DNA from: Pseudopyrenochaeta lycopersici
Taxonomy: Eukaryota; Ascomycota; Dothideomycetes; Pleosporales; Pseudopyrenochaetaceae
Reading direction: 5' to 3'
DNA: 64,000 bases
Assembly (NCBI GenBank): GCA_003313425.1
Contig: NHZP01000032.1
Location: 124,001 to 188,000 of the forward strand
Below, in pieces: positions 2,391 through 6,633 of the stretch (its first letter is position 1; every line of letters begins with the position of its first letter). The notes beneath the pieces were generated by a model. It did no database searches, was not told the DNA's origin, and was given only the letters and a program-made list of their open reading frames with translations. The translations under genes and the position numbers were made by a program.

Positions 2391-3401
2391 TCAAGGGCGA
2401 CTAATTGCCATCCTTTTGGTTTGAACCCCTATTAACTGCATCGTAACATCAAGAGTCGCACCGTAATTTATCTGCACAGCCTGATCTTCAGCAACATTGT
2501 CCTTAACCACAAGCCTAGTCATATGCTTCCATATGTCTTCCCCGACTGCAGCATTGATCTGAAGTGCTTGATTTCGGGCGCAATTTCGTAGAATGATGCG
2601 CTCCATCTTTGAAGGCATTTCTCGTTCCGCAATATCCTCGTCATCAACGAGAGTCTCATCCCCGCTGTCGTCTTCATCGTTTCCTTCACGAGCTAGAGCT
2701 CGCAGATCAGAATCAGTTAGCAGCACGGTTCCATCAGCTGTTGCAGTCAGTAATGAGGCAAAGCGGACTGTTAGAATACATACTTGATGGGCGCCGACCC
2801 TTCAACAGCTTAGCAATACGTAGTCCTGCACTCTCATCGACTTGCTCCCGGAGAAACCGATCAATTCTCTCAATCACTTCTGCATTCGCAACCAATTGTT
2901 TCTCCATCGTGCGCATCACTCCAACGCTGGTGACCTGTATGCGCAACAAAAGCATCGCCTTCACCTGTCCAAGCTCCCCCATGATGCTAGCTAATTTTCT
3001 TTCCTCGATAGAACCTTGGGTAAATTGTCGCGCAAACTGTCTCATCTTGCTTGTCTGCTTTGGGTCTATGTCTTTCAAAAATGCTGCTAGTTTTTGTTGG
3101 ACATCTTGCAATCTTGATAACTCGGTCGCAACGACAGATGTTTGGAGGTCTTCCTCATCGTCTATCACGCCAACTATGGCCTTTACGCTGTTCAATTCAG
3201 CTTGATGGCGGCTGATGACCTCGGCCAATGCTTTTTGGCGTTCGTGCGCCAGGCGGAGCCGTTCAAGAATTCGGCAAGCTTGCTCCACTAATTGTGAAGC
3301 AGCCTGGATCGCGGACAAGAATACAAACGCCTCAGCCTGTTGGCCATGTGAGCGCAGTGTCAATGAACGGGTTGAAGCATACTAACCATATTTGCTCCCA
3401 T
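2391..3401 (-). CDS. HET-S-like protein: helical HeLo-like N-terminus with two C-terminal HET-s-type amyloid motifs
   Basis: Three exons on the minus strand: 3401-3387, 3336-2784 and 2737-2391, giving 304 residues. The introns are 50 bp (GTTAGT...ACAG) and 46 bp (GTATGT...ACAG). The first exon encodes only MGANM; splicing then gives AEAFVFLSAIQAASQLVEQ. Residues 5-190 look all-helical and resemble the HeLo-like N-terminal region of fungal NLR and HET-S proteins (inference from pattern). A short acidic linker follows (NDEDDSGDETLVDDED). Then come two copies of one motif, NCARNQALQINAAVG and NVAEDQAVQINYGAT, 29 residues apart. In HET-s, two such pseudo-repeats form the beta-solenoid prion fold that drives the N-terminal domain into membranes. 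The gene lies 404 bp downstream of a same-strand gene carrying a third copy. Domain family and function are inferred; splice structure is well supported because all phases agree. Confidence 0.75.
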
Positions 3402-3804
3402 GTACGGCAAGCGGAGGATTTGATTGTAGAACTTTGAGATTGTGGCATCTGAGGCAACCACTCAATTTATCCCCAGCTGAAACCTACCGCCCATTCTGGG
3501 GCGCAGCGGTGGTCATGCACATACCAGGTTCGCGAGTGGACAGTGACTCGCTCGCTGATTGCATGCATGATGGAGTGATATGGCCAGTAAGACGCAATTG
3601 CGAATGGAATGTAGCCAACATGGGCCTATCAACAATGACTGATGGCTATGCATACGAGCCAATCACAAAAGAATGCCGTGAACATATCGTGTGTGCTGAC
3701 CAATAGACACACGAGCGCATCTGACAACAGGAGAATTGGCGTGTTGCAGCGCATGCAAGCCCCTCTCTCCCTAAGCGAGGCAGTGTCTGCCTCCCATTCT
3801 ACGA
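3402..3804. promoter_or_regulatory. Intergenic spacer upstream of the HET-S-like gene
   Basis: No gene is supported. A 104-codon + strand frame (3392-3706) crosses it without any recognisable domain. The spacer must hold the terminator of the upstream gene and the promoter of the HET-S-like gene. CCAAT-type boxes occur near 3659 and 3700. Confidence 0.4.
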
Positions 3805-4663
3805 TCAGGTTGATTCGCCAGACGTGTCGCAGCCGATGATCATGTCGAAAGCCGAGCAACCTTTAACAACGAAGAAGCGAAGCTTAGTTTCGGTCTCTCG
3901 GTGGTCATTGAAACAAACGAGGTCAACATAAATACTGGATGATACTATCCATTTCGAATCCAGGTTGATCGGATCTGGATAGAAGTCTCCTCGACGCGGT
4001 TCCATCTCCAAGCGCTTGACGATCCGATGGGCGATAAGATTATGTGACAAGTTGGGTTGGGAGATGACGCGAACTGGAAAGGGTTTCTTGCTGATGCCAG
4101 AGTAAAGACGAAGTACTTGGCTCGATCGCGACAGTTGCGAGGAAGAACGACGCTACGTGACGTCAGAGACATCCTCAGATAGCTGGCGGACATACGGTTT
4201 CTCCTATTTGCAGCTTTGATGCCTCGCTGCTGGGAGCGGGCATGTTCGATTGTGGTGACTGCATAACTACATTTGATCTAGTTCTTGCTAGAGGTCGACC
4301 AAGGCACCCATATGGATCAGTCTTTGTACTTTGACTGTAGTTGAAATTCATTATAAGATTTTGACTATAAGATGTTAGGTCATGATTCCAGGTTCAACGA
4401 GGGTCGTGTAAAACTCACAAATTAATGTTTAAGATCTTATCCGCGACGGAGCCATTGATCTGAACCGCATTGTCCTTGGAGGTGTTATGACTGCTGGAGG
4501 AGACGATTGCGCCAGGCCCCGGGCACTTTGATGCATGGTCGGAGTTGCCATGCACAGAGGTGCTAAAAGCAGTTCTATCCATATGAGAAGAGGTCAAGCT
4601 GTTTTCTCTCAGTATATTCAAGTATGGAGGCACAGCTGGATGCGCAGCGGCTTGAAGCAGCAT
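3805..4663 (-). CDS. Protein with one N-terminal HET-s-type amyloid motif and a retropepsin-like domain
   Basis: Three exons on the minus strand, 4663-4419, 4364-4196 and 4152-3805, give 253 residues. The introns are 54 bp (GTGAGT...TATAG with CTAAC) and 43 bp (GTATGT...CGTAG with CTGAC). Each intron removes an in-frame stop and restores one frame to the end. Residues 60-74 read NTSKDNAVQINGSVA and align without gaps to both motifs of the neighbouring HET-S-like protein. Residues 83-145 are a polar linker. Residues 145-253 resemble a retropepsin fold: HNLIAHRIVKRL, then a strand pair around IYVDLVCFND and LRFFVVKG, ending FDMIIGCDTSGES. The usual DTG/DSG at the first catalytic loop is replaced by SQPN, so proteolysis is doubtful. 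Met28 is an alternative start. In known systems a single N-terminal motif marks the receptor; here no NACHT or NB-ARC is attached. Confidence 0.7.
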
Positions 4664-5183: not shown

Positions 5184-6633
5184 ATGGATGGGTTCCACAG
5201 GAGGGTTGAGCGTTTAGTATACGACTTTCCTGAGAAAGCTATTGACATTATCCTGAGCCGCTGCCATGACCAGCACACATGTAATGAGATCATGGCCTTT
5301 CTCGCAGACCGACCGACTCAGCCTGATGCGCGGAGTCCTCCAAGAGGGTTGAACATTACTGTCGGCACTGCAACGCCGTCTCTTCCTCCACTTGGTACGG
5401 AAGCGCCAAACTCTCCGCTGACACGTGACGTCCGCTCACGGCCGCTCAGCTCATACACTGGTGCCGCTACACCTATGAGTCCCCCAAGGACAGTGTCTTC
5501 TACTGCTTCACGTTCATCGGCTGGAGGTAATAGATCAGCAGAGGATATACTCCTTTATGGAGATGATGACGAAGACCTCAAACCCAAACCAGTCCGGATG
5601 AAGATCGCAGCCATTGAGCATAGTGTCATTCGAGATGACGTTGTGCACTCTAGGAATCTAGGCGAGAATCTAAACACCATTGCGCCCTTTACTGTCCAGG
5701 TGCCTCAACGTGAAGCCCCAAGTAACGTCGTGGATATAATGACTATGCAATGTGTACAAATCACGTGGCGACGTCGGAATTCTGATTCAACACACTGGAC
5801 GATGTTCTACGTGGTTCCTGGTAGACTGTTAGACGCGGATGTCCTTCTAGGCTGCACAGACTCGGGCGAACCTTTAATAGGTATGTTGAAGCGGTCAACA
5901 GACTCTCCTTTCATGAATATATGCTCACAGCAACGTTTTGAATGCAGACCACGCAACAACTATAGCGCCACAGCCCCAGCGCCGTCACGAATATAACTTC
6001 AGGAATTTTAATCAGCAGTCAATGCCCGTCGCTCCAACACCTCCTCAGAATTCATACCACCCATCCGCCGTGTCGTACAATTCTGCCCCTCGCGAGAGGG
6101 CTATGCATGACACGGGGCGACACCACCCCCCGTTCATGGATGCATTGCTAAGTCGCCAACAAAATGCCACCTCACACAGACAAATTCCGCCTGTCCAGGG
6201 ATCACCAACACCCACTGTTCTGGACGCTCGCTCATTTCCCGCCGAAGCTTCGCAGCCGCTTGGACCTCGGGGTTTTTCAGGTGCATCTGCTCCGCGCAAT
6301 GGCCAAGGACGTGAGCCGTCAGATAGGCTGAGAGTTTGTCTAATGTGGGACAAGACTACAATGAGTCTATGGCTTGATCTCGCTGCCCCAGCAGAGCATT
6401 TCTTCGACGCGTTCCGACAGGCTGCGGAAAAACGCAAACGTGTTTTCAATCGGCCTGAGACAACGATATATTTCAAGAGGGACAAGTTGTCACCAGATGA
6501 AGAAGACTTCGAGCTGTCTTTTGACGAAGAGAGCCTTGAGGCAGACTGGCTTCAGACGCTAGACTGGTTGGAGGAGAACAAGAAAGATACTTCGCCACAT
6601 ATACACGGAAGGGTGCAGGTCGATGAGGGATGA
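5184..6633 (+). CDS. Retropepsin-like domain protein with conserved C-terminal domain of unknown function
   Basis: Two exons, 5184-5880 and 5948-6633, joined by a 67-bp intron (GTATGT...TGCAG), encode 460 residues. GTG precedes the ATG at 5184. Residues 1-45 form a likely helical segment (RVERLVYDFPEKAIDIILSR). Residues 46-130 are Pro/Ser/Thr-rich and disordered, with DILLYGDDDED near 125-135. Residues 140-235 match the retropepsin-like region of the neighbouring minus-strand gene: HSVIRDDVVHSRNL, TMQCVQITWRRR, WTMFYVVPG, DVLLGCTDSGEPL. The catalytic DTG position again lacks the motif. A second disordered stretch follows. The last 110 residues are a compact domain beginning LRVCLMWDKTTMSLWLDL and ending ADWLQTLDWLEENK. 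I recognise it as recurring in fungal proteins but cannot name it. No amyloid motif is seen. Frame and splice are solid; function is unknown. Confidence 0.72.

What the first reader, a model, noticed from the sequence alone, without database searches (positions are those of the whole stretch)
2391..4663. Two adjacent genes share HET-s-type amyloid motifs in a 1 + 2 arrangement
Seen directly: NTSKDNAVQINGSVA near the N-terminus of the 3805-4663 protein aligns without gaps to NCARNQALQINAAVG and NVAEDQAVQINYGAT at the C-terminus of the 2391-3401 protein. The consensus is N-x-[AS]-x-[DN]-[NQ]-A-[VL]-Q-I-N. Known: in fungal amyloid signalling (HET-s/NWD2 and the HRAM families) a receptor carries one N-terminal motif and a pore-forming HeLo-type effector carries two C-terminal ones, and the genes sit side by side. 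Inference: this is such a pair, but the receptor-side protein has a retropepsin-like domain in place of an NLR.
Basis: partly seen in the sequence, partly recalled or inferred. Interest (0 to 1): 0.88.

Follow-up and report, generated by a model that had tools for sequence, protein, structure and literature searches.

The report
Two-repeat amyloid effector beside motif partner
In a filamentous fungus, a conserved gene resembling known cell-death effectors ends in two repeats of the kind that act as prion-like switches, and the next gene carries one matching motif but is not the usual immune receptor, which hints at a trigger of a different kind.

Summary
The motif observation is real. The 2391-3401 gene (A, 304 aa) ends in two ~21-residue repeats; the upstream same-strand gene at 3805-4663 (B, 243 aa) carries one copy. 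A profile built only from database relatives of A ranks B's motif first outside A among 285,846 translated 19-mers; 2 of 10,000,000 random 19-mers score as high. A is a conserved Dothideomycete family (87 database hits). Its tail fits a two-rung beta-solenoid: 99 opposite- against 2 like-charge pairs in register, and the same strand pattern twice in AlphaFold2. The motif does not meet the published HRAM definition: no conserved glycine, an N-to-N span of 11 rather than N-to-G of 17. No NLR was found near: the closest NACHT hit scored on the contig is ~310 kb away. B's 'retropepsin-like' domain is not confirmed (no Pfam match, model confidence 39, no DTG). B's domain recurs in the divergent neighbour C, and relatives of A and C carry locus tags two steps apart in Neocucurbitaria. 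Best reading: amyloid-switched effector plus a fast-evolving, non-NLR motif carrier. Nothing here shows that B signals to A or that cells die; no homologue of B was found.

The parts
2391..3401 (-). Gene A: SesA/HeLo-like effector candidate, 304 aa; exons 3401-3387, 3336-2784, 2737-2391
   Evidence: Splice model; 87 homologues at E<=1, best 2.5e-112, worst 1.4e-27; alignment A1
2784..3401 (-). N-terminal helical domain of A (exons 1 and 2)
   Evidence: AF2 of orthologue P0001: helices 2-60, 67-90, 100-140; PF17111 in 5 and PF17107 in 6 of 50 rows at E<=1, best 2.3e-4 and 0.022; 26-28% identity to two SesA-like genes in the same genome
2538..2600 (-). Repeat r1 of A (RIILRN.AR.QALQIN...); limits set by me
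2454..2516 (-). Repeat r2 of A (RLVVKDNVAEDQAVQIN...); limits set by me
3805..4663 (-). Gene B: candidate motif partner, 243 aa; exons 4663-4419, 4334-4196, 4152-3805
   Evidence: Splice model; exon 3 and motif exon found once in the genome; no homologue found
4454..4486 (-). Core of the single motif r0 in B (NTSKDNAVQIN)
   Evidence: Profile scans
3805..4152 (-). C-terminal domain of B (exon 3); 'retropepsin-like' not confirmed
   Evidence: BLASTP to C 28/121 (23%), E 0.002 for the single comparison; AF2 pLDDT 39; no significant Pfam family
5184..6633 (+). Gene C: divergent neighbour, 460 aa, shares B's C-terminal domain; exons 5184-5880 and 5948-6633
   Evidence: Splice model; two homologues, P0088 (93% over 50% of C) and P0089 (43% over 53%)

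Best explanation
Gene A encodes a cell-death-type effector (a SesA/HeLo-like helical bundle) that is held inactive until its C-terminal pair of repeats folds into a two-rung amyloid beta-solenoid. Gene B encodes a small partner with one copy of the same motif; when B molecules are brought together (by ligand, partner or self-association of the C-terminal domain) their single motifs stack, form a seed and template A's tail, which releases the helical bundle to act, most likely on the plasma membrane. Shown here: gene models with clean splice sites, the motif match beyond chance, conservation of A and of both repeats, in-register charge complementarity, a predicted repeated strand pattern, no NLR found nearby. 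Inferred: amyloid folding, templating from B to A, membrane activity, any role in non-self recognition or defence, and that B's domain senses or self-associates.
For: A has 87 database relatives at E<=1; the 49 aligned ones are 44-67% identical, named from many Pleosporales genera and from Venturia and Tothia, which are Venturiales. Repeats: in 43 distinct r1/r2 pairs the unshifted register gives 99 opposite- and 2 like-charge pairs and 0.80 agreement in hydrophobicity, better than each of eight shifted registers; the opposite charges sit mainly at three positions (N-6 in 32, N-1 in 23, N+3 in 28 of 40 distinct pairs, like charges 0 at each), the same logic as the three inter-repeat salt bridges described for HET-s (PMC4518210). 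AF2 of orthologue P0001 with 47 sequences gives strands 238-242, 245-246, 251-253 and, 29 residues on, 267-271, 274-275, 280-282; block pLDDT is 59 for 231-240 and 78-87 for 241-300. B's motif is the best non-A hit in the three scans; its stretch has 6 S and an H in 27 residues, in line with the S/H enrichment reported for receptor motifs, though it also keeps two K and two D (PMC4518210). The one NACHT hit scored on this contig is at C32:437386, about 310 kb off, of 87; no NB-ARC hit of 50 lies on C32; no G..G.GK[ST] occurs in any frame of the window and the 20 kb before it. B exon 3 is probably coding, since it resembles C and C has homologues. Relatives of C and A in Neocucurbitaria sp. VM-36 bear tags 041830 and 041850 on a contig of the same length, leaving one tag for the place of B (inference from names and lengths).
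Against: No homologue of B was found, whereas A is widely conserved, so in other species A may have another partner or none. B's motif lacks the upstream hydrophobic strand in register. A codon-usage test did not separate A, B or C from non-coding stretches, so B's reality rests on ORFs, splice sites and the similarity to C. Upstream regions of only 40 of 87 NACHT hits, and of none of the NB-ARC hits as such, were read; no comparable motif is in those 40, but a distant NLR partner remains possible. The genome hit lists score only the best candidates and are lower bounds. The AF2 model of A has pTM 0.42 and Foldseek gives no PDB match at E<=0.001; the tail was not modelled alone. Charge counts are over related sequences, not independent events.
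Confidence: 0.5

Rival explanations
1. A is an amyloid-switched effector as above, but its receptor is an NLR elsewhere in the genome, and B's motif is a decoy, amplifier or relic rather than the trigger.
For: The genome has 87 NACHT and 50 NB-ARC hits, partly the same places; two SesA-like paralogues of A sit near NACHT-type P-loop frames; co-operation of non-adjacent genes is suspected in fungi (PMC9815663 section 24). A is conserved where B could not be found.
Against: Upstream 5 kb of 40 of the 87 NACHT hits hold no motif near B's score (best 10.3 bits against 15.9 on the 19-mer); adjacency and same strand favour B.
Confidence: 0.25
2. Intron 1 of B is often retained, or B is not one gene: unspliced, the motif exon ends in a stop 12 residues after the core motif, giving a motif-only protein of 82 aa (55 aa from the second Met) that acts as a prion-like seed or brake, while exon 3 belongs to another product.
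For: The frame 4663-4415 ends just behind the motif.
Against: GT...AG sites with frame kept through three exons.
Confidence: 0.12
3. Chance or recent local duplication: B's motif is a convergent or copied fragment without function.
For: Roughly 9-25 matches of this score are expected by chance in six frames of the whole genome (my arithmetic); no conservation evidence for B.
Against: Expected number within 5 kb of A is at most about 0.004; core match as good as A's own r1.
Confidence: 0.13

Closest known systems
HET-S/NWD2 of Podospora anserina and the HRAM1-5 families (PMC4518210, parts 1-4 of 5 read)
   Same: Effector with two C-terminal ~21-residue pseudo-repeats, opposite charges in register between repeats, single motif in the adjacent gene, linker of about 7 residues by my limits (published range 6-18 in 154 of 155)
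   Different: No conserved glycine at the arch (most frequent G in 24 of 48 r1 and 11 of 50 r2 rows); asparagine closing an 11-residue span instead of glycine closing a 17-residue one; the adjacent gene has no NLR domain; motif in B is internal, not at the extreme N-terminus
PP/RHIM-like motif (HELLP/PNT1; passages of PMC5485727 and PMC4518210 part 1 read)
   Same: A hydrophobic-Q-hydrophobic core flanked by small or polar residues
   Different: GxQxG occurs in 0 of 48 r1 and 0 of 50 r2 cores; two repeats in the effector, PP has a single copy
Sigma cluster SESA/SESB/HET-eN (passages of PMC5485727 read)
   Same: SesA-like helical domain on the effector
   Different: Sigma motif is about 40 residues with threefold repetition of submotifs; the partner is an NLR
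Protease-clustered fungal gasdermins (passages of PMC12881547 read)
   Same: Death effector beside a gene that is mostly not an NLR
   Different: There the neighbour encodes a protease domain; here B shows no catalytic motif and the shared motif suggests templating

Membership tests
HRAM (HET-s-related amyloid motif) | Two C-terminal pseudo-repeats of about 21 residues, linker 6-18 | tested here: met
   First asparagine of both repeats in 48 of 50 aligned rows; N-to-N distance 29 residues in A, linker about 7 by my limits
HRAM (HET-s-related amyloid motif) | Perfectly conserved glycine at position 19, 17-residue span from the conserved N | tested here: not met
   Closing residue is N in 47 of 48 r1 and 50 of 50 r2 rows, 11 residues from N to N; no glycine column above 24 of 48
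HRAM (HET-s-related amyloid motif) | Charge complementarity between equivalent positions of r1 and r2 | tested here: met
   99 opposite vs 2 like in register, eight shifted registers worse; relatedness not controlled
HRAM (HET-s-related amyloid motif) | HeLo, HeLo-like or SesA N-terminal domain | tested here: inconclusive
   A itself has no such Pfam hit; PF17111 in 5 and PF17107 in 6 of 50 rows at E<=1; 26-28% identity to SesA-like paralogues; Foldseek none at E<=0.001
HRAM (HET-s-related amyloid motif) | Single motif at the N-terminus of an adjacent NLR (98 of 155 published cases) | tested here: not met
   Adjacent B has the motif but no Pfam NB domain; nearest NACHT hit scored on the contig about 310 kb away, no NB-ARC hit on it
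HRAM (HET-s-related amyloid motif) | Match to Pfam PF11558 (only 38 of 155 published cases) | tested here: not met
   Not listed for A at E<=10 nor among the 25 of 54 families shown for the 50 rows
HET-S/NWD2 amyloid signalling | Cross-seeding beta-solenoid fibrils and membrane-directed cell death | not testable with these tools
   Needs experiment; only an AF2 strand pattern here
PP/RHIM | G-x-Q-x-G core | tested here: not met
   0 of 48 r1 and 0 of 50 r2 cores; [AS]-x-Q-[IV]-N in 45 of 48 and 39 of 50
Retropepsin-like (B and C) | Catalytic D-[TS]-G near the start of the domain | tested here: not met
   B reads QPN and C IAA at that place by my own alignment to the recalled retropepsin pattern (letters)
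Retropepsin-like (B and C) | Retropepsin fold or Pfam match | tested here: inconclusive
   No Pfam retropepsin family at E<=10; AF2 pLDDT 39, 3-row alignment; PDB by sequence: best E 1.3, a ubiquitin-conjugating enzyme, none for the B/C profile

The most novel reading that the evidence does not exclude
Amyloid signalling in fungi need not start from an NLR: a compact, fast-evolving protein made of a single amyloid motif and a small beta-rich domain (perhaps a dead, dimer-forming protease fold) seeds an old two-repeat effector whose motif forms a separate class with asparagine in place of the arch glycine. Surveys that start from NLRs cannot see such pairs.
Probability: 0.3. Interest if true: 0.8.

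Novelty: new variant of a known kind. Interest (0 to 1): 0.6.

Why it matters
Of the two fungal motif surveys read here in part, PMC9815663 draws its motifs from NLR N-termini and from effectors near NLR genes, and PMC4518210 starts from effectors but then looks for adjacent NLR genes, finding them for 98 of 155 two-repeat effectors and leaving 57 without one. A conserved effector family with an apparent non-NLR motif partner gives a concrete, testable candidate for what else can fire these switches, and a motif class that tests how far the two-rung fold tolerates loss of its arch glycine.

Tried and rejected

Searches in print: 'amyloid signaling motif' + Pleosporales 0 papers; SesA + amyloid + Dothideomycetes 3 listings, unrelated by title; HET-s + aspartyl protease + amyloid motif 0; retropepsin + fungal + NLR 2 listings, unrelated by title; amyloid signaling + fungal + protease + HeLo 7 listings; amyloid signaling + non-NLR + fungi 4 listings, of which only PMC9815663 was opened; HRAM/amyloid/HET-s/HeLo 36 papers, 20 listed. 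PMC12261475 was seen in passages only. Supplementary lists and figures of the HRAM papers are not readable here, so some A relatives or this motif may already stand in them.

Full report
Place. The window is G000:C32:124001-188000 of a 62.7-Mb assembly in 188 contigs. The relatives of gene A that carry an organism name are Dothideomycete fungi (Venturia, Tothia and Neocucurbitaria looked up); the species itself is not named here. The first 12 kb have about 50% GC, the next 50 kb 29-48%, the last 2 kb 51%.

Gene models. Gene A (minus strand) has exons 3401-3387, 3336-2784 and 2737-2391, 304 aa; gene B (minus) has exons 4663-4419, 4334-4196 and 4152-3805, 243 aa. All four introns are GT...AG, 43-84 nt, and keep the frame. 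The exon 1/exon 2 joint of A falls at the 'M-AE' start shared by most of the relatives shown. A codon-usage score did not separate A, B or C from non-coding stretches, so it neither supports nor harms B.

Is the motif match real? From 49 of the 87 database relatives of A I took both repeats, built a weighted profile without letters of this window, and scanned. B's motif scored 15.9 bits; 2 of 10,000,000 random 19-mers reach this. Of 85,490 real 19-mers in the window and six flanking or paralogue loci, and of 285,846 when the 5-kb upstream regions of 40 NACHT hits were added, it came third after A's own two repeats; the next is 11.6. On the 11-residue core B (24.3 bits) equals A's r1 (24.5), the next of 394,141 being 16.0. 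Reservations: genome-wide, some 9-25 chance matches at 15.9 bits are expected by my arithmetic; the hydrophobic strand before the motif is out of register in B; and the motif starts at residue 60, not at the extreme N-terminus.

The tail. r1 and r2 are 29 residues apart in A. In 48 of 50 rows both repeats keep the first asparagine (P0062 and P0066 skipped), in 46 of 50 both keep N.......Q.N. Of 40 distinct pairs, 32 have opposite charges at N-6, 23 at N-1 and 28 at N+3, with no like charges at these three places. Sliding r2 by -4 to +4: the unshifted register has 99 opposite and 2 like pairs and 0.80 hydrophobicity agreement over 43 distinct pairs; the shifted registers reach at most 67 opposite with 14 like (+4), or 51 with 3 (-4), and agreement of at most 0.62. 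Where N+3 of r1 is neutral, r2 can be basic (P0040, P0042, P0049, P0053). The proteins are related, so these are not independent events. AF2 repeats the same strand pattern in both repeats; block pLDDT is 59 where the first strand begins (231-240) and 78-87 over 241-300. [quoted passage not shown]

Family membership. The HRAM definition includes a perfectly conserved glycine at position 19 and a 17-residue N-to-G span. The A motif has no conserved glycine (at most 24 of 48 r1 and 11 of 50 r2 rows at one place) and closes with asparagine (47 of 48 and 50 of 50) after 11 residues. It therefore may work like an HRAM but does not meet the definition of HRAM1-5. GxQxG, the core of PP, occurs in none of the 98 repeat cores (passages of PMC5485727). 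The 16 NLR-side motifs and the effector-side motifs of PMC9815663 (sections 19 and 24 read) were found from NLRs or NLR-adjacent effectors; their logos are figures and not held, so I cannot exclude that one matches.

What is B? No homologue at E<=1 among 143 candidates (at most 100 words are used and only proteins of about 134-425 aa are candidates, so single-exon fragments would be missed). Exon 3 was found once in the genome. It resembles part of the divergent neighbour C (28/121, E 0.002 for the single comparison), which supports exon 3 as coding. C (460 aa) has two homologues at E<=1: P0088 (93% over half of C, on a contig of 11,548 bases, the same length as that of the 89% A relative P0015) and P0089 from Neocucurbitaria sp. 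VM-36 (43% over the C-terminal half; it begins at the end of the domain shared with B). P0089 is tagged 041830 and the A relative P0001 is tagged 041850, both on a contig of 1,067,951 bases, so A and C appear to lie together there with one tag between; this is read from names and lengths, the gene between was not seen. The retropepsin reading: no Pfam retropepsin family for B exon 3 or C at E<=10, no significant PDB sequence match, AF2 pLDDT 39 with strands 73-82, 87-97 and 103-108, and no DTG at the expected place. It is neither confirmed nor excluded as a dead protease fold.

Where is the NLR? 87 NACHT and 50 NB-ARC hits were scored in the genome (lower bounds, partly the same places; the NACHT model also rings in all 14 control genomes); the only one on C32 is a NACHT hit at 437386-437808, about 310 kb from A. 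No G..G.GK[ST] occurs in the window or the 20 kb before it.

Mechanism. The likeliest scheme is the HET-S/NWD2 one: clustering of a single-motif protein makes a seed; the seed converts the two-repeat tail of A; the helical domain is released. Here the clustering device would be B's own C-terminal domain instead of an NLR. Each step after the sequence evidence is inference. The main rival is that A answers to an NLR elsewhere and B is a modulator (0.25); chance or relic 0.13; a motif-only product 0.12.

Verdict. A new variant of a known kind: the effector side is well supported and conserved, the non-NLR partner is a good but unproven candidate, the retropepsin label should be dropped until a structure supports it.

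Noticed in passing
L004 (C54) and L005 (C42), with L009-L012: Two SesA-like paralogues of A lie near NACHT-type P-loop frames on the opposite strand; a single G-N-rich motif seems shared between the P-loop gene's N-terminal stretch (YDGNTIDGNAIAILGNIHG, L004) and the stretch behind the SesA-like exon (QGNRAHGRSTVLQGNADAAG, L004), a possible 1 + 1 arrangement; exon joints were not worked out.
   Followed up: partly
window 5184-6633 (+): Gene C, divergent from B, shares B's C-terminal domain and has a further C-terminal half conserved in Neocucurbitaria, without significant Pfam match; that relative lies near A by locus tags.
   Followed up: partly
G000 genome: Among 87 NACHT hits several pairs on different contigs have identical scores and frame lengths (for example C9:87500 and C25:483755), and four of 50 NB-ARC hits contain stop codons (C10, C6, C78, C62).
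   Followed up: no
window 12001-62000: Most of the window is AT-rich (29-48% GC) beside a start at about 50% GC, as in genomes with AT-rich isochores of decayed repeats; A, B and C lie in the GC-normal part near the edge.
   Followed up: no
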